50,220 bases of DNA, from assembly GCA_003250475.1 (NCBI GenBank), contig QKGI01000166.1, positions 1-50,220 of the forward strand. Reading direction: 5' to 3'. The DNA comes from Bacteroidota bacterium (GTDB lineage Bacteria; Bacteroidota; Bacteroidia; Bacteroidales; VadinHA17). Shown piece after piece: positions 8,081 to 44,886 of this stretch. Positions within the stretch are counted from its first letter, which is position 1; every line of letters begins with the position of its first letter. The notes below the pieces were generated by a model, which was not told where the DNA came from, searched no databases, and saw nothing but the letters and a program-made list of their open reading frames with translations. The position numbers and the translations under genes are program-made.

Positions 8081-10063
8081 ATGGCTGATGGTTACAGAAG
8101 TCTGAGTATCGGAGAGATCCGGGGTCTTGAAGCTGCCGGGTGCCGAAGCAACTCATGGGAAAGTATCTTTGTCAAAGACCCGTTCAATGCCGAGAGGATA
8201 CAAAATGTAACCTTCTCGGGTACTGTCAGGCTTGGCCACTTTAACGGGATAGCCCGCGAGAGATGCGGGCTGCCACTGATGCACGGCATAAGGAACGCAC
8301 ATATACACAACTGTACCATAGCCGACAATGTCACTATCACCGATATCACGGGTTTCATTGCCAATTATGATATAGGCGAGGGTGTCATAATAAGAAACTG
8401 CGGCCACATATCCACCGAAGGGCGTACCTCATTCGGGAACGGCACACGTGTGGCCGTACTCAATGAAACAGGCGGAAGGGAGGTGCCTATCTGGGACCGG
8501 CTGACATCACATATGGCTTATATCATCACTTTGTACAGGCACAGGCCTGCTGCCATAGAGGTGATTGAAAAACTGATATCTGACTACACGGAGAGTGCCA
8601 GGAGTGACCGTGGAGAGATAGGCTCAGGATCATACATCGCCGGATGCGGTACCATAAAGAATGTTAAGATCGGTAACGGGGCAGTGATAGAGGATGTATC
8701 ACGCCTGGCCGAAGGGACGGTGAACAGCTCGTTCAAGGACCCCGTATATATAGGTAATGACGTGATCATGGATCATTTCATCATCTGCTCGGGATCAAAG
8801 GTCAATGATGCTGCAGTGATAGACAAATGCTTCATCGGCCAGGGCTGTACACTGTCAAAACAGTATTCGGCAGAGAACTCTCTGTTCTTCTCCAACTGCG
8901 GAGGATACCATGGCGAGGCGTGCTCCATTTTTGCAGGCCCTTTCACGGTCACCCATCATAAATCGACCCTCCTGATTGCCGGCATATTCTCATTCATGAA
9001 CGCCGGCAGCGGCTCCAACCAGAGCAATCATATGTATAAGCTCGGTCCCATCCATCAGGGGATAATGGAGCGCGGATCAAAAACAACGAGTGACTCGTAC
9101 GTTCTGTGGCCCTCACGTATCGGACCCTTCACACTGGTGGTAGGGCGTCATTACCATAACGTTGATACCACACAGTTCCCCTTCTCCTACCTGACAGAGG
9201 TAAGCTATGAATCACAGCTGATCCCGGGCATTAACCTGCGCAGCGTGGGCACCATACGCGACGCACAGAAATGGCCCAGGAGAGACATGCGCAAAGACCC
9301 GAAAAAGCTTGACCAGGTAAACTATAACCTGCTCAGCCCGTTCACCGTCGGCAAGATGATGAACGGCAGGGAACTGCTGAAACAGCTGCTGAAGGATAAC
9401 CCCGGACAGCCGGTTATATCTTTCGACAGGATGAGCATGAAAACCTCAGCAGCCGAAAGAGGGGTCAACCTTTATCAGATGGGAATAGATAAGTTCATAG
9501 GCAACTCGGTTATCAAACGGCTGGAAGGGATGGCTCCTGGCAATGACGAAGATATCAGGAGGAGGCTTAAACCTGACTTTGACAAGGGTACGGGTGACTG
9601 GATCGACATGTCTGGACTGATAACCCCGCTGAGATCGATCGAGGAGCTGCTTAATGCCATCGAGAACAGGGAGATGAAGACGGCCGATGCCATCAACAAG
9701 AGCTTTGAAAACATTCACAGGCACTATTATGATATGGAGTGGACCTGGGTATATGACAAACTGCCGCAGGAGACAGGCAAGCCGAATGATCAGCTTACCG
9801 CTACCGATATCATTGCAATAGTGGAGAGATGGAAGAAGAGCGTGGTTGACCTTGACAGGATGTTGTACGAGGATGCCCGCAAGGAGTTTACCCTGTCATC
9901 AATGACCGGCTTCGGTATCGATGGTGACGATGAGGTCAAGAAGCGCGATTTCGAGCAGGTGAGGGGCGATTTTGAAAAGAACAGCGTAGTTCTCGCCATC
10001 CTTGATCATATAAAGGTTAAGACAGAGCTGGGCGATGAGCTGATAGGACGTCTGAAGGTCTGA
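8081..10063 (+). CDS. DUF4954 family left-handed beta-helix protein
   Basis: A 660-aa protein, 16 bases after glmS. The N-terminal two-thirds holds imperfect hexapeptide-type turns (IGNGAVIEDVSRL, IGNDVIMDHFIICSG), as in left-handed beta-helix acyltransferases, and the C-terminal third is helical and charged. This matches DUF4954, a Bacteroidota family with no assigned reaction. Position next to glmS suggests, without proof, a role with hexosamines. Its last codons and TGA stop (CGT CTG AAG GTC TGA) are part of the GGTCTGAA repeat that begins repeat tract 2. Confidence 0.85.
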   Translation: MADGYRSLSIGEIRGLEAAGCRSNSWESIFVKDPFNAERIQNVTFSGTVRLGHFNGIARERCGLPLMHGIRNAHIHNCTIADNVTITDITGFIANYDIGEGVIIRNCGHISTEGRTSFGNGTRVAVLNETGGREVPIWDRLTSHMAYIITLYRHRPAAIEVIEKLISDYTESARSDRGEIGSGSYIAGCGTIKNVKIGNGAVIEDVSRLAEGTVNSSFKDPVYIGNDVIMDHFIICSGSKVNDAAVIDKCFIGQGCTLSKQYSAENSLFFSNCGGYHGEACSIFAGPFTVTHHKSTLLIAGIFSFMNAGSGSNQSNHMYKLGPIHQGIMERGSKTTSDSYVLWPSRIGPFTLVVGRHYHNVDTTQFPFSYLTEVSYESQLIPGINLRSVGTIRDAQKWPRRDMRKDPKKLDQVNYNLLSPFTVGKMMNGRELLKQLLKDNPGQPVISFDRMSMKTSAAERGVNLYQMGIDKFIGNSVIKRLEGMAPGNDEDIRRRLKPDFDKGTGDWIDMSGLITPLRSIEELLNAIENREMKTADAINKSFENIHRHYYDMEWTWVYDKLPQETGKPNDQLTATDIIAIVERWKKSVVDLDRMLYEDARKEFTLSSMTGFGIDGDDEVKKRDFEQVRGDFEKNSVVLAILDHIKVKTELGDELIGRLKV

Positions 10064-10119
10064 AGGCCCCGACACTTCGTGTGCGGGGTTTCAGAGCTTC
10101 GCTCTTCAATCTGAAGGTC
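10057..10119 (+). repeat. 63-bp module B, copy 1
   Basis: Identical at all 63 positions to 44824-44886. It carries two hairpins with a TTC loop: CCCCG-ACAC-TTC-GTGT-G-CGGGG and AGAGC-TTC-GCTCT. Outer TTCAGA and TCTGAA arms could alternatively enclose the second hairpin. Confidence 0.85.
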
Positions 10120-10149
10120 TGAGGTCTGAAGGTCATGCGGTCTTGTGGT

Positions 10150-10173
10150 TCCCGACATGCTTTGCTGTCGGGA
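10150..10173. repeat. Perfect 8-bp inverted repeat in tract 2
   Basis: TCCCGACA (10150-10157) pairs with TGTCGGGA (10166-10173). An inner GC-TTT-GC extends the stem past a single bulged T. It is a strong hairpin on either strand between converging genes and could end transcription, but no T-run follows it. Confidence 0.6.
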
Positions 10174-10195
10174 CTTCGTCGTTTCACTCCTTGCT

Positions 10196-10242
10196 TGCAG
10201 TCATGTCGGAGCGAAGCGGAGATCCTCGACCGTAAGGTCGGG
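10196..10242 (+). repeat. 47-bp hairpin module C, copy 2
   Basis: It differs from 178-224 at two positions. One change is in the unpaired 5' part (G to A). The other is in the second loop base of CGACC-GTAA-GGTCG, leaving a GNRA-type loop and the stem intact. Confidence 0.75.
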
Positions 10243-10285
10243 ATGGTCAGTTTTTACATGGTATGAGGTGACGGCTGTGTTGTCC

Positions 10286-11347
10286 TTACCTGTTCCCGTA
10301 CATCTCCTCGTAGTATTTTGAATATTCACCGGATATGATGGTGTCCATCCATTTCCTGTTGGCGAGGTACCAGTCAACAGTCAGTCCCAGCCCCTGCTCA
10401 AAGGTGACTGACGGCTTCCACCCCAGTTCCTTCTGCAGCTTGCTGCTGTCGATGGCATAACGCAGGTCATGCCCGGCCCGGTCTGTAACAAACGTGATCA
10501 GTTCACGGGAGCTGCCGGCTCTTCTGCCGAGCTTCTCATCCATGATACGGCAGAGCAGCAGCACAAGGTCAATATTCTTCCATTCGTTGTCACCGCCTAC
10601 ATTATATGTCTCACCGGGTGTTCCGCTATGAAAGATTACATCTATGGCAGCCGCATGATCCTCAACATAGAGCCAGTCTCGTATGTTCTCCCCCTTTCCG
10701 TAAACCGGGATGGGTTTCATCGTTTCAATATTATTGATGGTCAGGGGAATGAGTTTTTCCGGGAACTGGTTGGGACCGTAGTTGTTAGAGCAGTTGGAGA
10801 TCACGAAAGGCATACCGTAGGTGTTGCCGAAGGCTCTTACCATATGGTCTGAGCTGGCCTTGGATGCTGAATAGGGGCTCCGCGGATCGTAAGACGTCTG
10901 CTCTGTGAAAAAGCCCCCCTGTTCCAGTGAACCGTATACCTCATCCGTCGACACGTGATAGAAGAGCTTTTTCACATCATTAACAGGGGTGGTCTCCCGG
11001 AAGGCCTTGAGCAGGTTGACGGTCCCGATGATGTTGGTGTAGATGAACTCGTCAGGAGAGGTGATCGATCTGTCAACATGTGTTTCAGCAGCGAGGTGGA
11101 TGACACCGTCAAACCTGAATTCACCGAAGAGTGCCTCAACGGCCTGCCTGTCAACGATGTCTGTCTTGCGGAACAGGTAGTTCGGTTCATTACCTATGTC
11201 AGCCAGGTTACCCAGGTTGCCGGCATAGGTCAGCTTGTCGGCATTGACTATGGTGTACTCCGGATATGTCCGTACAAAACGCCTGACAACATGTGAACCG
11301 ATAAATCCTGCTCCTCCGGTAATGAGAATGACTCTTTTCATTTTCAT
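10286..11347 (-). CDS. rfbB: dTDP-glucose 4,6-dehydratase
   Basis: RfbB converts dTDP-glucose to dTDP-4-keto-6-deoxyglucose, the first committed step to dTDP-rhamnose and related 6-deoxysugars. The chosen start (MKMKRVILITGG) overlaps the galE stop as ATGA; a frame extending to 11371 is less likely. Visible are GGAGFIGSH (NAD binding), STDEVYGSL, and YSASK with the catalytic Tyr and Lys. Length 353 aa is normal. The partner genes rfbA, rfbC and rfbD are not in the window. It is the last gene of the wbp-galE-rfbB operon. Confidence 0.95.
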   Translation of the reverse strand: MKMKRVILITGGAGFIGSHVVRRFVRTYPEYTIVNADKLTYAGNLGNLADIGNEPNYLFRKTDIVDRQAVEALFGEFRFDGVIHLAAETHVDRSITSPDEFIYTNIIGTVNLLKAFRETTPVNDVKKLFYHVSTDEVYGSLEQGGFFTEQTSYDPRSPYSASKASSDHMVRAFGNTYGMPFVISNCSNNYGPNQFPEKLIPLTINNIETMKPIPVYGKGENIRDWLYVEDHAAAIDVIFHSGTPGETYNVGGDNEWKNIDLVLLLCRIMDEKLGRRAGSSRELITFVTDRAGHDLRYAIDSSKLQKELGWKPSVTFEQGLGLTVDWYLANRKWMDTIISGEYSKYYEEMYGNR

Positions 11348-12369
11348 CTGTTTTTTAACTTGTTTTCCCATCGCCAGGCTGTCTCCATGGCCTCCTCAAT
11401 GCTTATTTCCGTCTTCCAGTGCAACTCCCTGTTAGCGAGTGACGGGTCAGCCCATATCTTTTCGATGTCTCCGGCCCGGCGCCCGGTGACGGAGTACTTT
11501 AGTCTGACACCCGTTGCTTTCTCGAATGCCGTTATTGCTTCCAGCACAGAGACGCCTTTTCCCATGCCGAGGTTAAAGACTTCATAGTTAGCCTTGTTTT
11601 TCCCCTCAAGCATCCTTTGCAGGGCCATGACGTGAGCCCTGGCCAGGTCGACCACATGAAGGTAATCGCGTATGCATGATCCGTCAGGTGTATCGTAGTC
11701 ATTGCCGAAGACCTTCAGCTCGTCCCTGATTCCTATTGCTGTCTGGGTGATGAAAGGCACCAGGTTCTCTGGGACCCCGTGGGGCTGTTCACCTATCAGG
11801 GCAGTAGGATGGGCCCCGATAGGGTTAAAGTACCTGAGTGAGACCGCCGTCTGTGAAGGTCTGGCAGCCATGGTGTCACGTATGATTATCTCTCCGGCCT
11901 GTTTTGTATAGCCGTAGGGAGATGCAGCCTCCTTTACCTGTGACAGTTCCGTCACGGGAAGCTCATCGGGCTGCCCGTAGACGGTGCATGACGAGGAAAA
12001 GACCAGGGCAGGCGTGTTATGGCGCTCCATCATGTCAAGGAGATTCATGAGCGATACAAGGTTGTTCCTGTAGTACTCAAGAGGCTTCCTGACAGATTCT
12101 CCCACTGCCTTGTATGCAGCGAAGTGAATGATGGCATCAACCTGTCCTTCGGCAGCAAATACCGACTCAAGCTGCGTCAGGTCACAGATATCATAATCAT
12201 AAAACCTGGGCCTTACCCCGGTGATGGCATGAATGCCATCCAGAACTGTGATGTCGGAGTTAAACAGGTTGTCAATGATCACCACATCGAAGCCTGAAGC
12301 TACCAGCTCCACTACAGTGTGTGACCCGATGTAACCTGTTCCCCCGGTAACGACTATCTTTTTTCTCAT
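11344..12369 (-). CDS. galE: UDP-glucose 4-epimerase
   Basis: GalE interconverts UDP-glucose and UDP-galactose (some members also the N-acetyl forms). The 341-aa product has GGTGYIGSH, SSSCTVYG and YGYTK with the catalytic Tyr-x-x-x-Lys. The start MRKKIVVTGG at 12369 shares one base with the TAA of wbpA; an in-frame start eight codons upstream is less likely. It sits inside the nucleotide-sugar operon. Confidence 0.93.
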   Translation of the reverse strand: MRKKIVVTGGTGYIGSHTVVELVASGFDVVIIDNLFNSDITVLDGIHAITGVRPRFYDYDICDLTQLESVFAAEGQVDAIIHFAAYKAVGESVRKPLEYYRNNLVSLMNLLDMMERHNTPALVFSSSCTVYGQPDELPVTELSQVKEAASPYGYTKQAGEIIIRDTMAARPSQTAVSLRYFNPIGAHPTALIGEQPHGVPENLVPFITQTAIGIRDELKVFGNDYDTPDGSCIRDYLHVVDLARAHVMALQRMLEGKNKANYEVFNLGMGKGVSVLEAITAFEKATGVRLKYSVTGRRAGDIEKIWADPSLANRELHWKTEISIEEAMETAWRWENKLKNR

Positions 12370-13658
12370 TACAGACTCCAGTATGTGAGCCACTTCATCC
12401 TGTTCCTGTAAATACCCTTGAGATCCACCAGTATGCCTTTCTCATTCAGCAGGTCAAGGAAAAACTTTTCATCAAGGTCCTTGTATTCTTTATGGGCTAC
12501 TGCCACTATTATGGCGTCATACTTTCCCGTGGGGGCTTTTTTGAGGTCTATACCGTATTCGTGGGCTACCTCTTCATGTGATGCACCCGGGTCAATCACG
12601 TCGACCTCAACGCCAAAATCACGCAGCTCGTTAACCACGTCGATGACCTTTGAGTTGCGTATATCCGTCACATCCTCCTTAAAGGTCATGCCCATGACCA
12701 GCACCCTGGCCTTATCCGGGCTCTTGTGGGCGGCAATGATCTTCTTAACTGTCTCTTTGCCCGCATAGGCGCCCATACTGTCATTGGTGAACCTGCCGGA
12801 GTCTATCATCTGCGGGTGGTAACCCATAGCCTTGGCCCTGTAGGAGAGATAATAGGGATCGACACCTATGCAATGGCCTCCTACCAGGCCGGGGTAAAAT
12901 TTAAGGAAGTTCCATTTTGTGCCTGCGGCTTCAAGCACCTCATATGTGTTTATGCCCATCCTGTTGAAGATGATGGAGAGCTCGTTCATAAAGGCGATGT
13001 TGATGTCGCGCTGGGTGTTCTCAATGATCTTTGCTGCCTCGGCCACTTTTATTGATGATGCGCGGTGTACCCCTGCTTCTATTATCAGCTCGTAGGTAAG
13101 CGCAATGTTCTCTGCTGACTCGGCGTCACACCCGCTGGTCACTTTTACGATCTTGGTCAGGGTATGGTTCCTGTCACCCGGGTTGATACGTTCAGGGGAG
13201 AAGCCCACCTTGAAGTCAGCCGGGCACTTCAGTCCCGAGTACCTCTCCAGGACCGGGATGCAGTCCTCTTCGGTACAACCCGGGTAGACTGTTGACTCAT
13301 ACACAACATAGTCGCCCTTCTTGAGTATGCGTCCCACGGTCTCCGATGCCTTGAGCACAGGGGTGAGGTCGGGGAGATTGTGTTTGGTCACAGGGGTCGG
13401 GACAGCTATTATATGGAATGAAGCCTCACTGAGGTCCTGCGGGTCTGAGGTATATTTTATGTCTGTACCCTCAAAGGCCTCATGGTCAAGCTCATTGCTC
13501 GGGTCAACGCCATTCTTCATCATCTCGACGCGGTCAGGTCTTATGTCAAAGCCAATGACGCTGATCTTTTTTGCGAATTCGAGGGCGATCGGGAGGCCGA
13601 CATAACCGAGGCCTATGAGAGATAGTTTGGTCTCTCTTTTTAAAAGTTTATCGTACAT
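12369..13658 (-). CDS. wbpA: UDP-N-acetylhexosamine 6-dehydrogenase (WbpA/TviB type)
   Basis: A 429-aa NAD-dependent nucleotide-sugar dehydrogenase expected to oxidise C6 of UDP-GlcNAc (or UDP-GalNAc) in two steps to the uronic acid. Visible are the N-terminal Rossmann site IGLGYVGLP, TPVTKHNLPDL, YESTVYPGCTE, and catalytic Cys263 in GGHCIGVDPYYL. TPVTKHN is typical of the TviB/WbpO/WbpA side of the family rather than UDP-glucose dehydrogenase. Adjacent wbpB, wbpD and wbpE argue for the WbpA role on UDP-GlcNAc. One base separates it from wbpB. Confidence 0.88.
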   Translation of the reverse strand: MYDKLLKRETKLSLIGLGYVGLPIALEFAKKISVIGFDIRPDRVEMMKNGVDPSNELDHEAFEGTDIKYTSDPQDLSEASFHIIAVPTPVTKHNLPDLTPVLKASETVGRILKKGDYVVYESTVYPGCTEEDCIPVLERYSGLKCPADFKVGFSPERINPGDRNHTLTKIVKVTSGCDAESAENIALTYELIIEAGVHRASSIKVAEAAKIIENTQRDINIAFMNELSIIFNRMGINTYEVLEAAGTKWNFLKFYPGLVGGHCIGVDPYYLSYRAKAMGYHPQMIDSGRFTNDSMGAYAGKETVKKIIAAHKSPDKARVLVMGMTFKEDVTDIRNSKVIDVVNELRDFGVEVDVIDPGASHEEVAHEYGIDLKKAPTGKYDAIIVAVAHKEYKDLDEKFFLDLLNEKGILVDLKGIYRNRMKWLTYWSL

Positions 13659-13659
13659 T

Positions 13660-14610
13660 TTATTTTTTTATTAGAGGATGATATTCACCTGTTAATACTG
13701 AGAGTGCGGAGTTTCTTATCTGGTATACTGTTTCTATGCTCTGGCGGGCATCTTCCAGGCCGTAGCCTTTCCCGTCAAGTATCTCGCGGTAAGTTACGGT
13801 GTGCAGGTCTGTGAATCCTTCGGAGAACTCCAGTTCCTCACCGTCAACGGTGATATTCCTGTAGGTCCGCTTACCCTTTTCCCTTGCAGCGGCTGGGAGG
13901 TCGTTGCTGTCGATACTCAGGAACCATCTTACGCGTGCGCGTTCGAGTTCGAGGAAGCCTGATGCCTTGTCACGCTCAAGCAGGTGCACCCTGTTTGAGA
14001 TGACAGGGCCGAAGATCCACCCCAGCATGTCGAAGAAGTGAACGCCGATATTGGTGGCTATGCCTCCGGACTTGTTGACATCGCCCTTCCATGAGATATA
14101 ATACCAGTTACCGCGGCTGGTGATATAGGTAAGGTCTATATCGTGCTTCTTATCCCCGGGGAGGGCTGCTATCTTATCGCGGAGCTCTGTTATCACAGGG
14201 TGGTACCTGAGCTGGAGGATGTTATATATCCTTCGTCCCGTCTCCTTCTCAATCTCCTGCAGGGCATCTATGTTCCAGGGGTTCAGCACCACAGGTTTTT
14301 CACATATGGCATCTGCATGGTGACGCAGGGCAAATCTGATGTGTGAGTCATGAAGGTAATTGGGTGAGCATATGCTGACATAATCAAGCTGCACCCCGCT
14401 TCTCTTCAGCTTATCGACATGCCTGTCGAATCTCTCAAATTCAACGAAGAAATCGCTCCCGGGAAAGTAGTTGTCTATCTTGCCTACACTGTCAAATTTG
14501 TCGAGGCTGGCCAGCAGCCGGTTTCCCGTATCCTTGATGGCTCTCAGGTGCCGCTCGGCAATATAACCTGCAATACCTATGAGTCCGAAGTTTTTAGGGG
14601 CGTCTTTCAT
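13660..14610 (-). CDS. wbpB: UDP-GlcNAcA 3-dehydrogenase, Gfo/Idh/MocA family (WbpB type)
   Basis: This enzyme oxidises C3 of UDP-N-acetylglucosaminuronate with NAD to give the 3-keto sugar used by WbpE. The 316-aa product has a degenerate nucleotide-binding start (NFGLIGIAGYIAERH), the CEKPVVLNP motif holding the family Lys, and a C-terminal alpha/beta substrate domain with GGIATNIGVHFFDML. The start at 14610 gives MKDAPKNFGLIG; a frame to 14643 adds an unrelated hydrophobic stretch. Size and neighbours match WbpB of Pseudomonas aeruginosa. Confidence 0.9.
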   Translation of the reverse strand: MKDAPKNFGLIGIAGYIAERHLRAIKDTGNRLLASLDKFDSVGKIDNYFPGSDFFVEFERFDRHVDKLKRSGVQLDYVSICSPNYLHDSHIRFALRHHADAICEKPVVLNPWNIDALQEIEKETGRRIYNILQLRYHPVITELRDKIAALPGDKKHDIDLTYITSRGNWYYISWKGDVNKSGGIATNIGVHFFDMLGWIFGPVISNRVHLLERDKASGFLELERARVRWFLSIDSNDLPAAAREKGKRTYRNITVDGEELEFSEGFTDLHTVTYREILDGKGYGLEDARQSIETVYQIRNSALSVLTGEYHPLIKK

Positions 14611-14639
14611 CAGAATGAGTTTAAAAAGGCATACTATTA

Positions 14640-15218
14640 TCAAACAATTTTTGTGACCTCCTGCCCGGAGAGCCTGTATCGCTGTTTACTTTCCGGGCAT
14701 ATGGCGATACCGTCAGCGCCGAAGTCAAGCCTGTGCCCGTATTCGGATACCCAGCCTGTCTGGCGGCCCGGGTTGCCAACAACCAGTGCATATGGCCTGA
14801 CATCTCTGGTTATCACGGCGCCGGCACCGATGAGCGAGTATTCACCTATCTCGTTACCGCATATGATAGTTGCGTTGGCACCTATGGAGGCCCCGCGCCT
14901 CACCATGGTGGTGACGTACTGGTCGCGCCTGATAACTGCACTGCGTGGATTTGTGATATTTGTAAACACCATTGAAGGGCCCAGGAAAACATCGTCTTCA
15001 CATATAACTCCGGTATATATCGATACATTGTTCTGGACCTTGACATTTTTTCCCAGCTTCACTCCCGGGGAGATAACGACGTTTTGCCCTATGTTGCAAT
15101 GTTCACCGATTTCGGCATCTGTCATGATGTGGCTGAAGTGCCATATCCTGGTACCGCGGCCGATGGTGCACCCTTCATCAATCACAGCGGTCTCGTGTGC
15201 AAAATAGTCTTTTTCCAT
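14640..15218 (-). CDS. wbpD: UDP-3-amino sugar N-acetyltransferase (WbpD type)
   Basis: A 192-aa left-handed beta-helix acetyltransferase that should acetylate the C3 amino group of UDP-GlcNAc(3NH2)A from acetyl-CoA. Hexapeptide turns run from about residue 10 to 150 (IGRGTRIWHFSHI, IGEHCNIGQNVVI, IGANATIICGNEIG). A short tail (CPESKQRYRLSG) follows. The start MEKDYFAHETAVID at 15218 is chosen because an upstream extension reads through the end of wbpE. It lies seven bases after wbpE. Confidence 0.92.
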   Translation of the reverse strand: MEKDYFAHETAVIDEGCTIGRGTRIWHFSHIMTDAEIGEHCNIGQNVVISPGVKLGKNVKVQNNVSIYTGVICEDDVFLGPSMVFTNITNPRSAVIRRDQYVTTMVRRGASIGANATIICGNEIGEYSLIGAGAVITRDVRPYALVVGNPGRQTGWVSEYGHRLDFGADGIAICPESKQRYRLSGQEVTKIV

Positions 15219-15225
15219 ACTTCGG

Positions 15226-37512: not shown

Positions 37513-38526
37513 CTACTGAAGCTGAAGGATCTTTTCCAGCCAGCCAAACACTTTCTCCTGCTCTTCCCGGCTGCACATATCGAGGCTTTGAACACACATG
37601 AACTTGATACCAGGGTCGGACTCACACAGGTTAATCTTTTTATCTATATAGCCGGCAGGGCGGTTAAAGGGCTTCAGATAGACTGAGCCGGGCCTGGCAA
37701 TGTACCTGTTGCCGTTGAGAAGCTGCAGGTGGTTTGCCAGGGAGATAAAAGTGAACTGAGAATAATCGCGGAACCTGAATGAGATGTTTCTCTTAAGCAG
37801 TTCCGGTCTCTGTCCGAAGAACTCTTCTACCGTTTTACGATTCACCGTATGGGGAGTATGGCTGTTGGTGAAATACCTGAACCTGAAGCCCAGCAACGAC
37901 GCTGAATTCCACTGTCCCATGTGAAAGGAGGCCCTGGGCTGATAATCAGCCTTTCCAGGCAGGTGATTGTTAACATATTTCCTGAGATGACCCGCCAGGA
38001 TCCTGAGACCCGGCACCGGCACCCATTTGCCCCTGATAACGGGTTTGTTGTCAACAAACCAGTCTTCGGGCTGCATCTCCCTGACCAGGAAGGTATCATC
38101 ATTGAAATAGATGAAATTCCCGGACAGGCCCTTGATCCTCCAGATCATATTTGCTATGGAGATACTGTTGAAAGTAGGCAGGTACTCTTCAAATCCCTCA
38201 AAGATTTCTTTATGATCGACAATCCTGACAGACTTCACCCTCTCAGGGAAATAGGTCCGGATTTCTTCGTCAAGGCCTGGGTCCTGGCCGTCTGTAACAA
38301 TAAAGATATTTCTGATAAAGGGAGCAAACCGCATGATAGAAAGGACACAATACCTGATTTCATTGGAAGATGCAAACCGTGTTGAGTGTGCACCGGAGCT
38401 CAGGCTTGTACTGTCACCCTTGATATATTTCTGTCTCTTTGCAGCCAGCAGCGGATCGTTGCCGTCAACCCATGCTATAACCGCATCAATCGGTTGGTTA
38501 CTGTCAGATGAGTTATTCCCAGTCAT
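37513..38526 (-). CDS. Stealth family sugar-phosphate transferase, paralogue 1
   Basis: Stealth proteins transfer sugar-1-phosphate units in capsule or surface polysaccharide synthesis. The 337-aa product shows conserved region 1 (IDAVIAWVDGNDP, about 13-25), region 2 (RFASSNEIRYCVLSIMRFAPFIRNIFIVTD), region 3 (NFIYFNDDTFLV) and a C-terminal region 4 (CVQSLDMCSREEQEKVFGWL). It is the downstream member of a tandem pair with the next gene, to which it is clearly similar along its length. No signal peptide or membrane helix is seen. Confidence 0.9.
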   Translation of the reverse strand: MTGNNSSDSNQPIDAVIAWVDGNDPLLAAKRQKYIKGDSTSLSSGAHSTRFASSNEIRYCVLSIMRFAPFIRNIFIVTDGQDPGLDEEIRTYFPERVKSVRIVDHKEIFEGFEEYLPTFNSISIANMIWRIKGLSGNFIYFNDDTFLVREMQPEDWFVDNKPVIRGKWVPVPGLRILAGHLRKYVNNHLPGKADYQPRASFHMGQWNSASLLGFRFRYFTNSHTPHTVNRKTVEEFFGQRPELLKRNISFRFRDYSQFTFISLANHLQLLNGNRYIARPGSVYLKPFNRPAGYIDKKINLCESDPGIKFMCVQSLDMCSREEQEKVFGWLEKILQLQ

Positions 38527-38543
38527 TGTTATCGGTCCTCAGG

Positions 38544-38579
38544 CAAAAATATAATTTATAAGCCCGGTTTGGTCCGGGC
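38544..38579 (-). promoter_or_regulatory. Hairpin and -7 box between the two Stealth genes
   Basis: The 104-base gap holds a perfect hairpin GCCCGG-TTTGGT-CCGGGC (38562-38579). Reading along the minus strand it is followed by an A/T-rich run that contains TATTTTTG (38551-38544), a -7-like box 17 bases before the paralogue 1 start. The pair could act as a terminator for paralogue 2 and a promoter for paralogue 1. Confidence 0.45.
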
Positions 38580-38630
38580 CGTTATCCAACTTTTCATTTT
38601 AAAGATAAACCAAATCAGGAGCCAAAGCAA

Positions 38631-39653
38631 TTACGTGCGGGCCTGAAGGTTCAAAACACTGTCCATCCATGTGAAAATTTTCTCCTGCAACGGCCGGCTG
38701 AGCATTTCAATGCTCTGGACACAAACGGACTTGATGCCGTACTCCCTGTCGCAATGAGCCATCTTCTTGTGCAGACGTTTTTCGGAGTAATAGGGATGCA
38801 GATACTCCAGGTTGAGTTTTGACAGCTGCCTGTTTCCATCCCTGATCTCAAGATGGTTGGCCAGCGATGTTATTATAAACTGGGTATGGTTTCGAAACCG
38901 GTAGGCAATATTCTTTTCAAGCAGTTCCCTGTTTTCAGAGAAATATTTCTCCAGTGTGCTCCTGTTCAGAGGGTGTGGTGTATGACAATGGAAGAAGTAC
39001 CTTGACCTGTACCCTGCCAGTGAAGCTGTCTGCCACTGCCGGATATAGAAGGAGATTTTAGGCTTAAAGTCGGGGTTATGCCGCAGTTTTGTGTTAACAA
39101 AGGCTTTGAGATAGTTCCCGAGTATCTTGTGAAAAGGGGGAATGAGCCATTTGCCCCTGAGAACAGGCCTGCCATCTATGAACCAGTCTTGCGGTTCAAC
39201 CCTGCGGATCAGGAAAACATCGTCGTTAAAATAGATGAAGTTTTCAGAGAGACCTTCTATTCTCCATATCAGCGATTGTATTGATGAGCTGTTAAAGCTT
39301 GGCAGGTACTGCTCATAGCCCCTGTAAATCTCTTTGTGGTCAACTATTTTCAGTATTCCCTCCCTCTCCGGGAAAAAGGTCTTTAATTCACCATAAAGGT
39401 CAGGGTCCTGCCCGTCTGTTACTATAAAGATGTTTCTTACGAAGGGAGCAAAGGTCAGAATGGAGAAAACACAGTACCTTATCTCGTTTGATGAGGCAAA
39501 ACGCAAAGGGAGGGCACCAGGATCGCTGGCGGACTTGTTCTCCTTTTTCAGATAAAGGTTCCGTTTTTCTGCCAGTACAGGATCGTTACCGTCAACCCAC
39601 AGGATAACTGCATCTATAGGATAACTCATCCCGGAATGGATGTTCTCTGACAT
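38631..39653 (-). CDS. Stealth family sugar-phosphate transferase, paralogue 2
   Basis: A 340-aa Stealth protein. Region 1 is IDAVILWVDGNDP, region 2 RFASSNEIRYCVFSILTFAPF, region 3 NFIYFNDDVFLI, and region 4 CVQSIEMLSRPLQEKIFTWM. The motifs match the neighbouring paralogue closely, while the segments between (substrate side, about 150-260) have diverged. It presumably acts on a different sugar or acceptor of the same glycan. Its promoter region is shared with the divergent glycosyltransferase gene. Confidence 0.9.
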   Translation of the reverse strand: MSENIHSGMSYPIDAVILWVDGNDPVLAEKRNLYLKKENKSASDPGALPLRFASSNEIRYCVFSILTFAPFVRNIFIVTDGQDPDLYGELKTFFPEREGILKIVDHKEIYRGYEQYLPSFNSSSIQSLIWRIEGLSENFIYFNDDVFLIRRVEPQDWFIDGRPVLRGKWLIPPFHKILGNYLKAFVNTKLRHNPDFKPKISFYIRQWQTASLAGYRSRYFFHCHTPHPLNRSTLEKYFSENRELLEKNIAYRFRNHTQFIITSLANHLEIRDGNRQLSKLNLEYLHPYYSEKRLHKKMAHCDREYGIKSVCVQSIEMLSRPLQEKIFTWMDSVLNLQART

Positions 39654-39681
39654 TGTTTTATGGTAAATGTATTGCTTTTAA

Positions 39682-39711
39682 TATTTTTGTGCAATTTTAA
39701 ACTAAAATTGC
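39682..39711 (+). promoter_or_regulatory. -7 box and 21-bp inverted repeat between Stealth and glycosyltransferase genes
   Basis: TATTTTTG (39682-39689) fits the -7 consensus for the glycosyltransferase gene. Directly after it, GCAATTTTA-AAC-TAAAATTGC (39691-39711) is a perfect inverted repeat with 9-bp arms, nine bases before the ATG. Its place in a divergent gap suits an operator; as RNA it would be a weak hairpin in the leader. Confidence 0.45.
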
Positions 39712-39720
39712 TTGATATCC

Positions 39721-40569
39721 ATGGCCAATAATACCCCCAAAAGAATCGGAGTAGTTTCCATGGTAAGGAATGACAGTTTTTTTATTCCAAAGTGGATCAA
39801 TTATTATAGCGAGCAGATCGGTCAGGAGAATCTTTTTCTCATCCTTGACGGGCTTGACCAGGCTCTGCCCGAGGGATTCGGGCACATCAACATCATCAGG
39901 CTACCACAGCGGACGTTAAGCCGGACCAGGGGAGACAGGAACCGGGCAAGGCTGATATCATACTTTGCACGGCTGTTGTTTCACAGGTATGACATCGTCA
40001 TTGCACACGATATTGATGAATACCTGGTTGTTGATCCTGATGCCGGGCAGACTTTTACCGGGTTTTTCCAGAAACCGATAAGGTATGCATCCCTTTCCGC
40101 ACTGGGCCTGGATGTGGGGCAGCATCTCAGGCTGGAGCATCCGATCGACCCTGGCATTCCCTTCCTTGAACAGAGGAGTTATGCCCATGTATCAGCGAGG
40201 TATACCAAATCAATTGTTGCTACCCGGCCGCTCACCTGGGGTTCGGGCTTTCACCGTGTAAAGGGTAAAAACTTTCACATTGACCCTGATTTGTACCTGT
40301 TTCATTTTGGGATGGTTGATTATGACATATCAAAAGCAAAACTCGGTGACCAGTCCCTGGTGGAGGCCGGCTGGCAGGGGCACCTGGGAAGAAGATATGA
40401 GCTTTTTGACCTGATATTGAATAATCCCGTGATTGAAGATGAGAATTTCCTGAAACGGGCAAGGATGAGACAGAGCCTTTTCCGTCCGTTTTATGCAATA
40501 AACAAACCCGGCATGCTCAGCGAGAAGCCGATCATTAAAATCCCGGAAAGATTCAGATCAGTTTTGTAG
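39721..40569 (+). CDS. Glycosyltransferase family 2-like protein
   Basis: A 282-aa cytoplasmic protein resembling small GT2-like transferases that lack the long Rossmann core. RIGVVSMVRNDSFFIPKWINYY opens the fold, and FLILDGLDQALP and AHDIDEYLVVD (DxD-type, metal and nucleotide-sugar binding, near 95-105) follow. TWGSGFHRVKG and LYLFHFGMVDYD lie further on. The ATG at 39721 is preferred to a TTG three codons earlier. Sugar specificity cannot be read. It is part of the Stealth/ligase glycan module. Confidence 0.78.
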   Translation: MANNTPKRIGVVSMVRNDSFFIPKWINYYSEQIGQENLFLILDGLDQALPEGFGHINIIRLPQRTLSRTRGDRNRARLISYFARLLFHRYDIVIAHDIDEYLVVDPDAGQTFTGFFQKPIRYASLSALGLDVGQHLRLEHPIDPGIPFLEQRSYAHVSARYTKSIVATRPLTWGSGFHRVKGKNFHIDPDLYLFHFGMVDYDISKAKLGDQSLVEAGWQGHLGRRYELFDLILNNPVIEDENFLKRARMRQSLFRPFYAINKPGMLSEKPIIKIPERFRSVL

Positions 40570-40613
40570 ACAGAAATTTGAATAATATTTTCGACATCCG
40601 TACCCGACGCTCC

Positions 40614-40675
40614 TTACCCGGGAAAATGAGCTGTGTGGCATGCCCGGGTAAAAGTGCGCAGCCGGTTCGCCCGGG
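40614..40675 (+). promoter_or_regulatory. Leader with three mutually complementary CCCGGG elements
   Basis: TTACCCGGG (40614-40622) and CCCGGGTAA (40643-40651) form a perfect 9-bp stem with a 20-base loop. A third CCCGGG (40670-40675), followed by AAAAT as is the first, lies 14 bases before the ATG and can pair with either other element. The pairings exclude each other, so this leader may adjust expression of the O-antigen ligase gene. A -7-like box was not found. Confidence 0.45.
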
Positions 40676-40689
40676 AAAATAAATTGCCA

Positions 40690-42285
40690 ATGACAACCAG
40701 GGACAGTTCATCAGGAGAATCATTTCACTTCCGGGTTTATTATGCCTCCCTGTGCCTGTTTGCCGTCGCACTGCCGGCATCACGGTTTCTGATGACCCTG
40801 AGCCTGATAGTGATGTTTGCCAACTGGCTGGCAGAGGGTGACTTCGGGAATAAGTTCAGGACATTTTCAGCCAGCAGGCCCGCCATAGCCTTTACACTAA
40901 TCTATTTCATATCTGTTGTGGGGCTCCTGTGGTCTGAAGATGTCAGGTATGCATTCCATAATGACCTGTTGCATAAGCTGCCCACCCTGTTTTTACCCAT
41001 GATCTTCGTTACCTCTCCGGCGCTCAATGATAAACAGATACGGCTGCTTCTGCTCTCTTTTATATCTTCAGTGGTGATAGTTTCGTTTATCGGGTTCTTC
41101 TACAGGGTAATTCAACCTGATGCCGGGTTCAGGCAGGCATCGCCTTTTGTCCCCGGTATCTATTTCGGGATAATGCTGATACTGGCAGCCTTCCAGCTGC
41201 CCCTCCTGATAAGGCAGACAGGCAACAGCAGGGTCCTGCTCCTGTCAGGCATTGCCGTATCTGCCTGGCTGATATTTTTCCTGTTCTATATAAGGGCATT
41301 GTCCGGGGTATTATCATTTACGGGTGTTTTAATCTTCATCGGGATACTTCTTGTTCAGAGGCTTAAAACAATGACCTTTAAGATATCAGCCGTCACCTTA
41401 CTCCTGGTACTCTCCGGGCTGGCGCTGGCACCTGTTATCAGTATCTACAGGCAGACTCATTCCGAGCTTTATACGGATTACAGCACGCTCGATAACTTTA
41501 CGGAATCGGGCAACCCTTATTTTCATGATACAATCGATATCCTGAGGGAGAACGGGTACCCCGTTTACATCTACCTGGCGGATGAGGAGCTCAGGCAGGC
41601 CTGGAATGAAAGAAGCAACCTCGACTATGAGGGGAATGACCTCTCCGGTAACCCGTTAAGATACACGCTGTACAGATACCTTTCCTCGAAAGGACTGAGG
41701 AAAGACAGGCATGATCTTATGCTGCTGCCTGACAACGAGATACGTGCCGTTGAGAGGGGGACAACCAATTACCGCAACCTGAAAAGACCGGGATTCTACG
41801 TAAGGATCTACGAAGAGATGATGGGTCTGTATATCTATAACAAGAGCTCGTATAAAGATGTTTCCTGGGGCTCGGTAACCAAGAGGATAGACCTGTGGCG
41901 GGCTTCCTGGAAAGCCTTCAGGAAGAAACCACTGGCAGGATGGGGCACGGGCAGTATTCTGCAGGCTGTAGGTTATGGCCTGGAGGAAAACGGATCTCCG
42001 CTGTCAGGGTTGAATATGAAGCCCCACAGTCAGTATCTGTACCTGTTACTTACAGCGGGCCTGACCGGACTGGTTGTCTTTCTGCTGTTGTACTCTTTCG
42101 TGATAACGGCAACGGGAGCCTGGAGACAATTCATGTTCGTTGTTTTCCTTATTGTTTTCGTCATTAATTTCCTTGGCAACAACTCCCTGGAATCTCAGCC
42201 GGGACAGAATCTGTTTGTGTTTTTTTCACTCTTTTACTGCTTTTACTATCCACGGCTGAATAAAAAACAGGAGTTTATATATTGA
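40690..42285 (+). CDS. O-antigen ligase/polymerase-like membrane protein (Wzy_C)
   Basis: A 531-aa polytopic membrane protein. About ten hydrophobic segments are visible, with a large hydrophilic loop between about residues 265 and 425. The Wzy_C-type signature sits at the end of the loop: RIDLWRASWKAFRKKPLAGW, then GTGS and PHSQYLYLLLTAGLTGL. Such proteins join or polymerise lipid-linked glycans on the periplasmic side. Ligase and polymerase cannot be told apart by eye. The ATG at 40690 is used; a GTG at 40633 would run through the hairpin leader. Confidence 0.82.
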   Translation: MTTRDSSSGESFHFRVYYASLCLFAVALPASRFLMTLSLIVMFANWLAEGDFGNKFRTFSASRPAIAFTLIYFISVVGLLWSEDVRYAFHNDLLHKLPTLFLPMIFVTSPALNDKQIRLLLLSFISSVVIVSFIGFFYRVIQPDAGFRQASPFVPGIYFGIMLILAAFQLPLLIRQTGNSRVLLLSGIAVSAWLIFFLFYIRALSGVLSFTGVLIFIGILLVQRLKTMTFKISAVTLLLVLSGLALAPVISIYRQTHSELYTDYSTLDNFTESGNPYFHDTIDILRENGYPVYIYLADEELRQAWNERSNLDYEGNDLSGNPLRYTLYRYLSSKGLRKDRHDLMLLPDNEIRAVERGTTNYRNLKRPGFYVRIYEEMMGLYIYNKSSYKDVSWGSVTKRIDLWRASWKAFRKKPLAGWGTGSILQAVGYGLEENGSPLSGLNMKPHSQYLYLLLTAGLTGLVVFLLLYSFVITATGAWRQFMFVVFLIVFVINFLGNNSLESQPGQNLFVFFSLFYCFYYPRLNKKQEFIY

Positions 42286-42320
42286 CCATCGAAGAAATCC
42301 GGACAGCACGGTATTATATA

Positions 42321-42354
42321 AAAGAAGCTTCCCCCTGCAGGGAAGCTTTCTTTT
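42321..42354. terminator. Bidirectional intrinsic terminator
   Basis: AAAGAAGCTTCCC pairs with GGGAAGCTTTCTTT across a six-base loop (CCTGCA), with one bulged T. T-rich sequence follows on the plus strand and the A-rich 5' arm gives U-runs on the minus strand. It separates the converging ligase and C1 peptidase genes. Confidence 0.8.
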
Positions 42355-42384
42355 ATCAGATGTATTTGCCGCGATGGGTATCTT

Positions 42385-43587
42385 TTATAAACCCAGTTTT
42401 GCTTTGATCTCAGGCGGGATTGCATCCCTGTGGACCATTATGAAGATCGTCTTGGCCCTCACATAGCTCTCTGACATGTACAGGAATCCTTCATAAGGAC
42501 CCCTGGCGGGACCGGATGAGTTTTTTGTAAAATAGTATCTGGTGCCGTTCTGGTCTTCTGCAAGGCCTGTTATGTGCATCAGGTGGTCATCGGTAGTAAC
42601 AAAGGTCTCGTAGCCGTTCTGGCGTATCTCCTGTGTGACATCAATTTCAGGGCATGGCTTGTCAAAAGTACCCGGGAAAGGTGTCCTGTCAGGCATCATC
42701 ATCTCGGGGCGCGACCTGTCATTCATAGCGGAGAGGTTCATCTTTGACGGGTCAGGATTGACAGCCAATCCTTTTGAGCCGGAGAATCCACGCTCACTCA
42801 CATCACCGTCCCAGTCAATTGTGTAGCCCTTATCCAGTGAATAGTCCATGACCTGTATGAGCTCGTCGAGCGGGAGGTTGTAAAAACGGTTCATCTCCCA
42901 GTTGTCTGGTATCTCAAGCACTTTCTTCGTATAGAAGGGAAAGTGATTAAAAGAGGTGAGATAGACATAGTCGTTCATGTTCAGCCCCAGGCTGGCAGCG
43001 AACGATTTAGGTGTATAGGCCTGGCCTTTGTAGGTGAATGTTTCCGGAACCTCCCCGAGGTAGATATCGAGGATGGCTTCTGTCACCTCTTCCGACTCCT
43101 TGCTCATACGCTTCGCCTTGACAGGCACTGTCGTGACCACATTGATATATGCCTGCAGCTCACGGTGGTTGTGAGTCTTTGAGTCATAGCTGATGCCGGA
43201 ATAGGCTTCCTGTGGCATTATACCGTCTTCATCGAAGACCCTGAGCCAGGAGGTGGAGAGGCTTCCCTCGCCGAGGTTACCTTTGCCGAGACGCAGGTAG
43301 TTATCTTTTATCCGGTTCTTGTATGTCTTCCTCACAACAAACATTTCAGAGAGGTCATATTCGCCCTTGCCCATGCGCAGAAGCTCGGATTCCATGAAGG
43401 AGGTGGTTGCAAAGCACCAGCAGGTACCTGTTGCGGCCTGGTTTTTGGCCGGGGTGGCAGGTAAAGAGACAAGGGTGGTGAACCTGTAGCCTTCAGGCTC
43501 TGCCGCTGCCTGTTTTTTACCCTTCTGTGCATGAAGGGATGCCAGCGCAAATATCAGGGCAACAAGAATAAACAGTGTCTTTTTCAT
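42385..43587 (-). CDS. Secreted C1-family (bleomycin hydrolase-like) aminopeptidase
   Basis: A 400-aa papain-fold peptidase of the PepC/bleomycin hydrolase branch. The N-terminus MKKTLFILVALIFALASLHAQ is a signal peptide, unlike cytoplasmic PepC. The catalytic Cys56 is in GTCWCFA, the His in DDHLMHITGL, and the Asn in YYFTKNSSG. The start at 43587 is four codons inside the longest frame. No type IX C-terminal domain is seen, so periplasmic location is likely. Neighbours give no hint of substrate. Confidence 0.9.
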   Translation of the reverse strand: MKKTLFILVALIFALASLHAQKGKKQAAAEPEGYRFTTLVSLPATPAKNQAATGTCWCFATTSFMESELLRMGKGEYDLSEMFVVRKTYKNRIKDNYLRLGKGNLGEGSLSTSWLRVFDEDGIMPQEAYSGISYDSKTHNHRELQAYINVVTTVPVKAKRMSKESEEVTEAILDIYLGEVPETFTYKGQAYTPKSFAASLGLNMNDYVYLTSFNHFPFYTKKVLEIPDNWEMNRFYNLPLDELIQVMDYSLDKGYTIDWDGDVSERGFSGSKGLAVNPDPSKMNLSAMNDRSRPEMMMPDRTPFPGTFDKPCPEIDVTQEIRQNGYETFVTTDDHLMHITGLAEDQNGTRYYFTKNSSGPARGPYEGFLYMSESYVRAKTIFIMVHRDAIPPEIKAKLGL

Positions 43588-43624
43588 CTGTATGGTCATT
43601 TAAATTTTGGTTTTCAGCACTACT

Positions 43625-43632
43625 CAAAATTA
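43625..43632 (-). promoter_or_regulatory. -7 box of the C1 peptidase gene
   Basis: Minus-strand TAATTTTG fits TAnnTTTG, 37 bases before the start codon. It is embedded in the A/T palindrome ATTATTTAAATAAT. Confidence 0.45.
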
Positions 43633-43689
43633 TTTAAATAATCTGAAAGGGGAAATGTTATTGAGCAGATGAGATTTTCAGCCCAGGAG

Positions 43690-44052
43690 TCACATGGTAG
43701 GATAATAAGCGTTTTCTATATGGTCGATACGGGGACCGTTTCCACCCATGACGATTGTTATTATATCAAACCTGGCCTCTTTGGAGATGTGGTATCTGCT
43801 TATATAATTTGATGCTGCATTGATTATCGTCCTCTGTTTCGGCACGTTGACCGCCTCGGTAGGATGAACCGCGAAGTCGGCCGAGCGGGTCTTGACCTCG
43901 ACAAAGATTATGAATTCAGGGTTTTCGGCTACGATATCGATCTCGGTGCGTCCCGAACGCCAGTTCCTGTCCCGGACCATATATCCCCTGCTCCGAAGGT
44001 AACCGGCAGCCAGCTCTTCGCCTCTTGTTCCCAGTGCAGCGACGTCATTCAT
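43690..44052 (-). CDS. YraN/UPF0102 family endonuclease-fold protein
   Basis: A 120-aa protein with the PD-(D/E)XK-like core of UPF0102: GTRGEELAAGYLRSRGY, EIDIVAENPEFIIFVEVKTR with the E-x-D and E-V-K residues, and FDIITIV near the end. The family is widespread and its role is not settled; it is often linked to DNA processing. It lies one base after the response regulator gene and is probably co-transcribed with it. Confidence 0.92.
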   Translation of the reverse strand: MNDVAALGTRGEELAAGYLRSRGYMVRDRNWRSGRTEIDIVAENPEFIIFVEVKTRSADFAVHPTEAVNVPKQRTIINAASNYISRYHISKEARFDIITIVMGGNGPRIDHIENAYYPTM

Positions 44053-44053
44053 G

Positions 44054-44695
44054 TCAGACCTCGATGAGCCTGTTTTTTATTGCATAGAGGATGAGGCTTG
44101 CAGTATTCTTGGACCCGGTTTTTGCAAGTAGGTTTGCCCGGTGCTTGTCTACAGTACGTTTGCTGATGAACAGTGCATTGGCTATCTCGTGGTTTGACAG
44201 TCCCTCGCAGATCTTCAGGAGTATCTCCTTCTCACGCTTTGACAGGCTCGAGCTCTTTTCCTCCTGTTCCCTGTTTTTTATTCTCCTGATGACATGGTAC
44301 AGCAGCTCCTGTGAAAAATAGTTACCACCCCGGTGGACGGCAATGATGGCATCATATACATCGGAGATGTCAGAGTCCTTAAGGATAAACCCCTTGGCAC
44401 CGGCCTCGACCATACGGTAGTAATATTCCTCCTCACCGTACATCGAGAGGGCAATCACGTTTGATGACGGCATCAGGCGTGTAACCTGGGCTGTGGCTTC
44501 GGCGCCGTCCATTTCAGGCATGCTGATGTCCATCAGGATGATATCGGCAGGGCAATCCTCCAGCATCTTCAGCAGCTCAACGCCGTTGGAGGCTTCGGCC
44601 ACCACCTCGAATTCACTGTAAGCACCTAGCAGAATCTTCAGTCCGTTGCGGAAGAGCTGATGGTCATCAGCAAGTGCTATCCTTATTATTTCCAT
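44054..44695 (-). CDS. NarL/FixJ-family response regulator
   Basis: A 213-aa two-component regulator. The receiver domain (1-120) has acidic pocket Asp10/Asp11, phospho-acceptor Asp56 in ILMDISMPEMDG and Lys in FILKDSD. The LuxR-type helix-turn-helix (about 145-210) reads LSKREKEILLKICEGLSNHEIA and KRTVDKHRANLL. The histidine kinase encoded upstream is the likely partner, but 233 bases of mostly repeat DNA separate the two genes. Confidence 0.95.
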   Translation of the reverse strand: MEIIRIALADDHQLFRNGLKILLGAYSEFEVVAEASNGVELLKMLEDCPADIILMDISMPEMDGAEATAQVTRLMPSSNVIALSMYGEEEYYYRMVEAGAKGFILKDSDISDVYDAIIAVHRGGNYFSQELLYHVIRRIKNREQEEKSSSLSKREKEILLKICEGLSNHEIANALFISKRTVDKHRANLLAKTGSKNTASLILYAIKNRLIEV

Positions 44696-44723
44696 GGTAT
44701 GCCGTTCGTTATGTTGTTATAGT

Positions 44724-44886
44724 CTTGCGGTCATGCAGTCATGCGGTCATGCAGTCATGCGGTCATGCAGTCAATATCTCCCCTGCAGTCTGGCTACTTC
44801 TCCGCCAGCTGGCGGATCGGCCCGGTCTGAAGGCCCCGACACTTCGTGTGCGGGGTTTCAGAGCTTCGCTCTTCAATCTGAAGGTC
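44724..44886. repeat. Intergenic repeat tract 3 (modular)
   Basis: Three repeat modules lie between the kinase and regulator genes. There are six gapless octamers C(T/A)TGC(A/G)GT (44724-44771), a perfect 16-bp palindrome TCCGCCAGCTGGCGGA (44801-44816), and the 63-bp module B (44824-44886), identical to 10057-10119. Order and content differ from tracts 1 and 2, which shows that modules are assembled combinatorially. Confidence 0.85.
44824..44886 (+). repeat. 63-bp module B, copy 2
   Basis: Matches 10057-10119 at every position. Two TTC-loop hairpins are present. It ends 42 bases before the kinase stop codon, and its orientation relative to the flanking gene is opposite to that at tract 2, so orientation follows the chromosome strand and not the gene. 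Confidence 0.85.

What the first reader, a model, noticed from the sequence alone, without database searches (positions are those of the whole stretch)
10057..44886. A perfectly identical 63-bp intergenic module occurs twice, 34.8 kb apart
Positions 10057-10119 and 44824-44886 agree at all 63 bases although both lie in non-coding DNA. The module folds into two TTC-loop hairpins (CCCCG-ACAC-TTC-GTGT-G-CGGGG; AGAGC-TTC-GCTCT). Perfect identity outside genes implies recent spreading, gene conversion or strong selection. No transposase or terminal structure is nearby.
Basis: seen in the sequence. Interest (0 to 1): 0.75.

Follow-up and report, generated by a model that had tools for sequence, protein, structure and literature searches.

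The report
Genus-specific double-hairpin repeats in octamer arrays
The repeated 63-base stretch belongs to a family of small two-hairpin repeats, set in runs of an eight-base unit and often just after genes, in one group of uncultured bacteria; its copies are nearly identical within this genome but differ from those of related species, so it looks like small spreading DNA, not a gene or an assembly error.

Summary
In detail: window 10057-10119 and 44824-44886 agree at 63 of 63 bases. They are not a two-copy accident: the genome holds 8 copies, and a covariance model finds 131 matches in 20 of 22 genomes of the genus but none in 118 sampled genomes of other genera of the order. The unit is a two-hairpin core between octamer arms, TCTGAAGG...TCTGAAGG, often inside longer (GGTCTGAA)n arrays; sister cores sit in other arrays. 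Hairpin tips are swapped within a fixed frame, and the closing pair of hairpin 1 covaries (77 of 79 paired). Hairpin 2 is the same in these 8 own copies and in 0 of 94 copies from other species; at four sites shared with other species it differs in 6 of 6 comparisons: concerted evolution, weaker in the other genomes. Copies on a gene's strand tend to start just after its stop codon (27 of 47 within 15 nt). No terminator-like site, Rfam match or Y1 transposase fits. Best reading: a small non-autonomous dispersed repeat, copied and homogenised through its octamer arms. The copying mechanism is inferred. It works like REPs and cyanobacterial small repeats but fails the REP features tested.

The parts
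10057..10119 (+). Copy 1 of the 63-bp two-hairpin element, octamer arm to octamer arm; overlaps the last 7 bases of ORF 8081-10063
10067..10088 (+). Hairpin 1 of copy 1 (CCCCG-ACAC-TTC-GTGT-G-CGGGG); closing pair covaries C-G/T-A across the genus
10093..10105 (+). Hairpin 2 inverted repeat of copy 1 (AGAGC-TTC-GCTCT); same in the 8 own copies, 0 of 94 copies of other species; not in the minimum-energy fold
10110..10135 (+). Right octamer arm and short (GGTCTGAA)n array
10149..10199 (+). Likely diverged sister core of the GTCATGCA-array type (TTCCCGA..TCGGGA..CTCCTTG-CTTGCA), 29 bases after copy 1
   Evidence: read beside the B-type cores; not among the model matches
10196..10242 (+). Another stem-loop module in phase with GTC (TCGGAGCGAAGCGGAGATCC...GACCGTAAGGTC), 96% identical to 178-224
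   Evidence: family D5
44722..44773 (+). (GTC[A/T]TGC[A/G])n octamer array upstream of copy 2
44780..44823 (+). Further module (CCCCTGCAGTCTGG...TCCGCCAGCTGGCGGATCGGCCC) abutting copy 2
44824..44886 (+). Copy 2 of the element, antisense to and between a histidine kinase gene (44929-45876, -) and a response regulator gene (44054-44695, -)
44834..44855 (+). Hairpin 1 of copy 2
44860..44872 (+). Hairpin 2 inverted repeat of copy 2
86..224 (+). Third array in the window: GGTCTGAA-type units, then GTC[N]TGC[R] units, ending in the module shared with 10196-10242; no two-hairpin core

Best explanation
The 63-bp module is a copy of a genus-specific, non-autonomous small dispersed repeat: a two-hairpin core flanked by direct octamer arms and set in a mosaic of octamer arrays and other stem-loop modules. 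It spreads and is homogenised within a genome by copying between arrays: arrays start where a gene end happens to resemble the unit, cores are carried from array to array by recombination or template switching through the octamer arms, and hairpin tips are exchanged by template switching inside the palindromes. The space just after stop codons tolerates or favours it. Shown by pattern: family, copy number, genus limit as far as sampled, array context, tip exchange, homogenisation in this genome, stop-codon bias. Inferred: how arrays start, the copying mechanism, and that no dedicated enzyme is needed.
For: 8 copies in the own genome; 131 model matches in 20 of 22 genomes of the genus, 0 of 118 sampled others of the order (stricter filters); a frame pattern scanned over genome contigs (84,980 species genomes) hit 11 contigs, all 11 equal in length to contigs of six congeners. 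Period-8 arrays: 23 in 400,749 sampled bases of the own genome, 0 in one mononucleotide shuffle (the sampled contigs were mostly ones known to hold copies). Arms mostly match the surrounding array type: GGTCTGAA, GTCATGCA or CGACTGC (read). Homogenisation: hairpin 2 identical in the 8 own copies, 0 of 94 copies elsewhere; differs in 6 of 6 comparisons at four shared sites; there own cores are 0.83-1.0 like their best own paralogue and 0.43-0.80 like the orthologue. Same-species pairs of the same hairpin-2 class 63 against 24.0 in shuffles, 0 of 5000 reach it; without the own genome 35 against 20.9, 37 of 5000 reach it. Turnover: at the copy-1 site G013, G017 and G018 show octamer arrays without a core in the stretch viewed, others no such array. 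No orientation bias between co-directional genes (23 sense, 24 antisense).
Against: No movement was observed; there is one genome per species, and the named ones are assemblies from metagenomes. The 8 own copies were found by likeness to the query; the model search added a ninth, diverged copy with another hairpin 2. 5 of 25 hand-picked orthologous pairs are closer to each other than to any paralogue, so part of the family descends vertically; best-paralogue values are maxima over several copies, and the shuffles treat related copies as independent. Without the own genome homogenisation is weaker. No precise filled/empty pair with near-identical flanks was obtained: at the closest sites the whole spacer is replaced, or the array runs to a contig end. 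The start close after stop codons could mean a function.
Confidence: 0.62

Rival explanations
1. A REP-like functional 3'-end element: the hairpins act in mRNA just after stop codons (ribosome stalling, 3'-end protection or decay), and selection keeps them there.
For: Left edge within 15 nt of the upstream stop codon in 27 of 47 copies with the gene on the same strand, against 13 of 48, 4 of 33 and 2 of 32 for the other three edge types. In 24 convergent pairs the left side is nearer in 17 (sign test 0.064, Wilcoxon 0.010). Closing pair kept in 77 of 79. In E. coli, REPs fewer than 16 nt from a stop codon can lower translation (passages of PMC12306157).
Against: Between co-directional genes sense and antisense are equal (23, 24). 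No terminator-like site at either copy; a hairpin-plus-T-run already stands before the element at one site in two species (L004, L024). Rfam: 0 in the window. Orthologous genes in several congeners lack it.
Confidence: 0.2
2. A transposon relic or MITE moved by an unrecognised or lost enzyme, making 7-8-bp target duplications (TCTGAAGG, ACTGCCG, CTTGCAG) that account for the arms.
For: Direct repeats at both ends, a fixed frame, and in-register position in different arrays (read).
Against: The arms belong to a few array families, not random targets; no terminal inverted repeats seen; the Y1 (IS200/IS605, RAYT) family PF01797 is absent from the own genome and from 14 of the 22 genomes of the genus, own included, among them carriers of many copies G003, G010, G016, G021; but it is present in 8, among them G002, G007 and G019. 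Other transposase families were not searched.
Confidence: 0.13
3. Assembly artefact or one recent segmental duplication in the window.
Against: 8 copies on 7 contigs in different surroundings and diverged relatives in 20 of 22 genomes.
Confidence: 0.01

Closest known systems
Repetitive extragenic palindromes (REP/BIME, REPIN) with RAYT transposases (PMC2817692, PMC3116915)
   Same: Small intergenic palindromes in several copies, often near stop codons, compensated stems, mosaic arrangement
   Different: No GTAG tag, no Y1 transposase found in the own genome, few copies, arms in direct orientation
CGTC-tagged REPs without a dedicated transposase (PMC3733652, passages read)
   Same: Small palindromic repeats apparently lacking a dedicated transposase
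   Different: CGTC follows the hairpin-1 stem in only 15 of 103 copies, not in the 8 own copies
Very small mobile repeats (SDRs) of cyanobacteria, Elhai et al. 2008 (paper not held; known here through a passage of PMC4390886, and recall)
   Same: Tiny modules; SDR5 enters the octamer HIP1 at a precise place; recalled: association with heptamer arrays
   Different: Other phylum and sequence; here two-hairpin cores with exchangeable tips
Intergenic heptamer direct repeats (TAACTGA) of Beggiatoaceae, Cyanobacteria and five Bacteroidetes (PMC4679880, passages)
   Same: Short tandem units between genes, sporadic distribution, no mechanism evident
   Different: In Maribeggiatoa mostly just before start codons; here octamers with stem-loop modules in phase, biased to stop codons
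Double-hairpin elements of Allomyces mitochondria (cited in PMC7218506, passages; primary paper not read)
   Same: Two-hairpin elements for which mobility was argued
   Different: Mitochondrial; whether they have arrays was not checked

Membership tests
REP / REPIN with RAYT | GTAG-type tag at the foot of the palindrome | tested here: not met
   GTAG in the first 14 bases in 0 of 103 copies
REP / REPIN with RAYT | Y1 tyrosine transposase (PF01797) in the genome | tested here: not met
   0 in own genome, 97.8% complete; in 8 of 22 genomes of the genus, not following copy number
REP / REPIN with RAYT | Palindromes paired as inverted doublets | tested here: not met
   By reading: the two hairpins differ in sequence and the arms are direct repeats
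CGTC-tagged REP | CGTC tag at one end of the stem | tested here: not met
   15 of 103 copies show CGTC after the hairpin-1 stem; not a family-wide tag
MITE | Terminal inverted repeats and target-site duplication | tested here: inconclusive
   By reading: no terminal inverted repeats; direct arms could be duplications or array units
Small dispersed repeats of the cyanobacterial SDR kind | Small repeat placed at a precise point of a short repeated unit, without its own enzyme (definition from the passage and recall) | tested here: met
   By reading: in-register position in octamer/heptamer arrays; homology to cyanobacterial SDRs was not tested
Structured RNA families (Rfam) | Match above gathering score | tested here: not met
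   0 in the window
Intrinsic terminator | GC stem followed by a T run | tested here: not met
   None at either copy; the one site found, 10337-10349, lies outside
REP-like 3' regulator | Effect on expression of the upstream gene | not testable with these tools
   needs expression data

The most novel reading that the evidence does not exclude
A self-organising intergenic repeat system: octamer arrays act as a phased landing frame into which several stem-loop modules plug, each with an interchangeable hairpin tip, and a genome-wide copying process (hairpin-guided template switching or an unknown hairpin-recognising enzyme) rewrites the copies in a genome to the same tip, so that intergenic DNA is replaced faster than the genes around it diverge.
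Probability: 0.3. Interest if true: 0.72.

Novelty: new variant of a known kind. Interest (0 to 1): 0.47.

Why it matters
Small palindromic repeats are common in bacteria, but how those without a known transposase spread is open. Here several congeners share sites at which the core, the array, or both differ, and in one genome the eight close copies carry the same hairpin tip. That makes gene conversion, template switching and enzyme-driven transposition separable by comparison, and shows how thoroughly the DNA between conserved genes can be rewritten.

Tried and rejected
Two-copy artefact or segmental duplication: rejected. Known RNA family: Rfam 0 in the window. Intrinsic terminator: none at the copies. 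RAYT/IS200 mobilisation: PF01797 absent in the own genome and not following copy number; other transposases, reverse transcriptases and integrases were not searched. Exact 24-mer scan of genome contigs: 0, probably because hairpin 2 is specific to this genome and its own record may be left out there; a frame pattern then found 11 contigs.

The RNAalifold consensus supports only hairpin 1 (7 pairs, one with changes on both sides); hairpin 2, whose sequence and length vary, was not recovered. Fold z-scores over copies are moderate (median -2.35; 54 of 103 below -2; 60 mononucleotide shuffles each).

The gene-context count used a simple ORF caller: 8 copies at contig edges and 15 inside long ORFs, some probably spurious, were dropped, leaving 80 of 103. 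The background (36 spacers from the same loci) is small and biased and was not used. 103 of 131 model matches were examined closely; the other 28 were left. The 25 orthologous pairs were picked by hand from the flank matches; most match on both sides, some on one, and several one-sided or partial matches were left out. Only up to 150 first-look candidates a genome were scored and 42, so copy numbers are lower bounds.

Literature: no paper on this element was seen in the listings (19 of 19 listed; 12 of 1,040; 13 of 13; 15 of 198; 15 of 152; 10 of 2,783; 2 of 2). These partial listings are no proof of absence.
Full report
OBSERVATION. The two stretches are identical at 63 of 63 bases, 34,767 bases apart, and the flanks differ from the next base outward. 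Copy 1 begins inside the last codons of the 660-aa ORF 8081-10063 (DUF4954/DUF6819); the stop codon TGA at 10061-10063 lies in its left arm. Copy 2 lies antisense between a histidine kinase gene and a LuxR-type response regulator gene. The 63-mer folds better than shuffles as RNA (-28.1 kcal/mol, z -3.53), but the minimum-energy fold keeps hairpin 1 and not hairpin 2 as drawn.

HOW MANY AND WHERE. The own genome (3.47 Mb in 168 contigs, 97.8% complete; the window is contig C14) has 8 copies by sequence and a ninth, diverged one by covariance model. The model, built from 21 copies, finds 131 matches at E<=0.01 in 20 of 22 genomes of the genus and none in 118 sampled genomes of other genera of the order, there with stricter filters. 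A plain sequence search had found 16 of 40 genomes, all in the genus. The pattern CGGGRTT-N{14,44}-CTCAATCTGAAGGTC scanned over genome contigs (84,980 species genomes) hit 11 contigs, all titled as Bacteroidales or Bacteroidetes assemblies from metagenomes; all 11 contig lengths equal those of contigs in six congeners. The frame is therefore genus-specific as far as tested.

ANATOMY. Listing 103 of the 131 matches shows a frame: left arm TCTGAAGG, base of hairpin 1 (Y)CCCG...CGGG(R), TT, hairpin 2, CTCAA, right arm TCTGAAGG, each with variants. The tips are exchanged: hairpin 1 carries ACACTTCGTGT, ATACACTTCGTTAT, ATCCGCCAGCTGGCGGAT, CACCCTTCGGGCAT and others; hairpin 2 carries AGAGC..GCTCT, GACCC..GGGTC, TCTCCGCC..GGCGGA and others. 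Some copies hold a further palindrome inside hairpin 1 or between the hairpins (L129, L112, L126, L138). The closing pair of hairpin 1 is T-A in 47, C-G in 30 and unpaired in 2 of the 79 copies with an exact frame (24 of 103 lack it); shuffled mean 59.2 paired, 0 of 5000 reach 77, copies being treated as independent. Related cores sit in two other arrays with matching arms: CAG-TTCCCG...CAA-CTTGCAGTC in GTCATGCA arrays, and GACTGCC-GTCCCG...CAA-ACTGCCGACT in CGACTGC arrays (read).

THE MOSAIC. In 400,749 bases of the own genome (window plus 20 stretches, mostly of contigs known to hold copies) period-8 tandem arrays number 23 against 0 in one mononucleotide shuffle; of the other periods from 2 to 15 only 15 (8 against 0) and 7 (3 against 1) exceed two, and both are partly mixed units of the same array. 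The main units are GGTCTGAA and GTC[N]TGC[R]. Other stem-loop modules sit in the same arrays, for example GTCTGTCGC-[TTC or CCCGCGGGGCGGG]-GCTCCGTC, again one frame with two tips (read). The window holds three such array regions, with two cores, a likely diverged sister core at 10149-10199 and two copies of another module.

CONCERTED EVOLUTION. Flank matches identify orthologous sites in different species. Of 25 orthologous pairs picked from them, 5 are closer to each other than to any paralogue; in 20 at least one member is closer to a copy elsewhere in its own genome, with the caution that the best paralogue is a maximum over several. For the own genome the pattern is strong: hairpin 2 is AGAGCTTCGCTCT in the 8 copies (not in the diverged ninth) and in 0 of 94 copies of other species; 6 of the 8 cores are identical; at four own sites with counterparts (one of them inverted) the hairpin-2 class differs in 6 of 6 comparisons. 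The 8 were first found by likeness to the query, but the model search added only the ninth. Within-species core identity is 0.686 against 0.637 between species, 0 of 2000 label shuffles reach it. Without the own genome the class test is weaker, 37 of 5000 shuffles reach it, and several genomes (G003, G010, G015) show no excess likeness within. At one site the element follows directly on the T run of the same terminator in two species, with different hairpin 2 (L004 and L024).

TURNOVER. At the copy-1 site the gene end is found in 19 of 22 genomes. Where GGTCTGAA-type arrays are present they usually continue the last codons (CGTCTGAAGG in G000, G018, G020); G013, G017 and G018 show such arrays without a core in the 330 bases viewed; G014 has a diverged core, G011 an array with a fragment like the start of a core, and the arrays of G020 and G001 run to a contig end or into N; the rest have no such array, many with different heptamer arrays. 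The copy-2 site, matched in 15 of 22 genomes with one cut at a contig edge, is equally variable, with a sister core in G014. At a third site G006 and G021 are 98% identical over 801 bases of flank while the spacer is wholly different.

POSITION. Of the 80 copies with usable context, 24 lie between convergent genes, 47 between co-directional genes (23 sense, 24 antisense) and 9 between divergent genes. Where the neighbouring gene upstream is on the element's strand the left edge lies within 15 nt of its stop codon in 27 of 47 (median 8), against 13 of 48, 4 of 33 and 2 of 32 for the other edges. In 8 copies the stop codon lies inside the left arm (distance -8); whether the arm brought it or grew on it cannot be told in each case.

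MECHANISM. Best reading: a non-autonomous dispersed repeat, copied between arrays through its octamer arms, with tips exchanged inside the palindromes, in spacers that tolerate it. The family, the in-register position, the tip exchange and the homogenisation in this genome are seen; how arrays start and how cores are copied are inferred. The main rival, a REP-like role just after stop codons, is kept open by the position bias. A Y1-type transposon is made unlikely, though 8 of 22 genomes do hold the family and other enzymes were not searched.

COMPARISON AND VERDICT. It works like REP elements and like the very small repeats of cyanobacteria, but GTAG and CGTC tags and a Y1 enzyme were tested and not met. 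Papers: passages of PMC4679880, PMC3733652, PMC2817692, PMC7218506, PMC4390886 and PMC12306157, and the abstract and outline of PMC3116915 were seen. It is a new variant of a known kind: moderately surprising, well supported as a family, with a mechanism still to be shown.

Noticed in passing
window 178-224 and 10196-10242: A second dispersed stem-loop module, 96% identical over 47 bases, next to GTC octamers.
   Followed up: partly
L199, L109 (G021, G006): Two species with 98% identical gene flank over 801 bases but a wholly different spacer, made of different short tandem arrays.
   Followed up: partly
L163-L180, L183-L196: At the same intergenic place different congeners carry different 7-8-base arrays (GGCAGTA, CAGTCTT, CGACTGC, GCAAATC, AATTCTT), so filling spacers with such arrays seems a habit of the genus while the unit changes.
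   Followed up: partly
L186, L189, L191, L192: Another repeated module in congeners, roughly ACAATNCTT followed by a small palindrome, two or three copies within one spacer.
   Followed up: no
own-genome sample: In GTC[N]TGC[R] arrays the five commonest units differ only at unit positions 4 and 8.
   Followed up: partly
L169, L200 (G020), L174 (G001): Octamer arrays end contigs or run into N, so these assemblies may under-count them.
   Followed up: no
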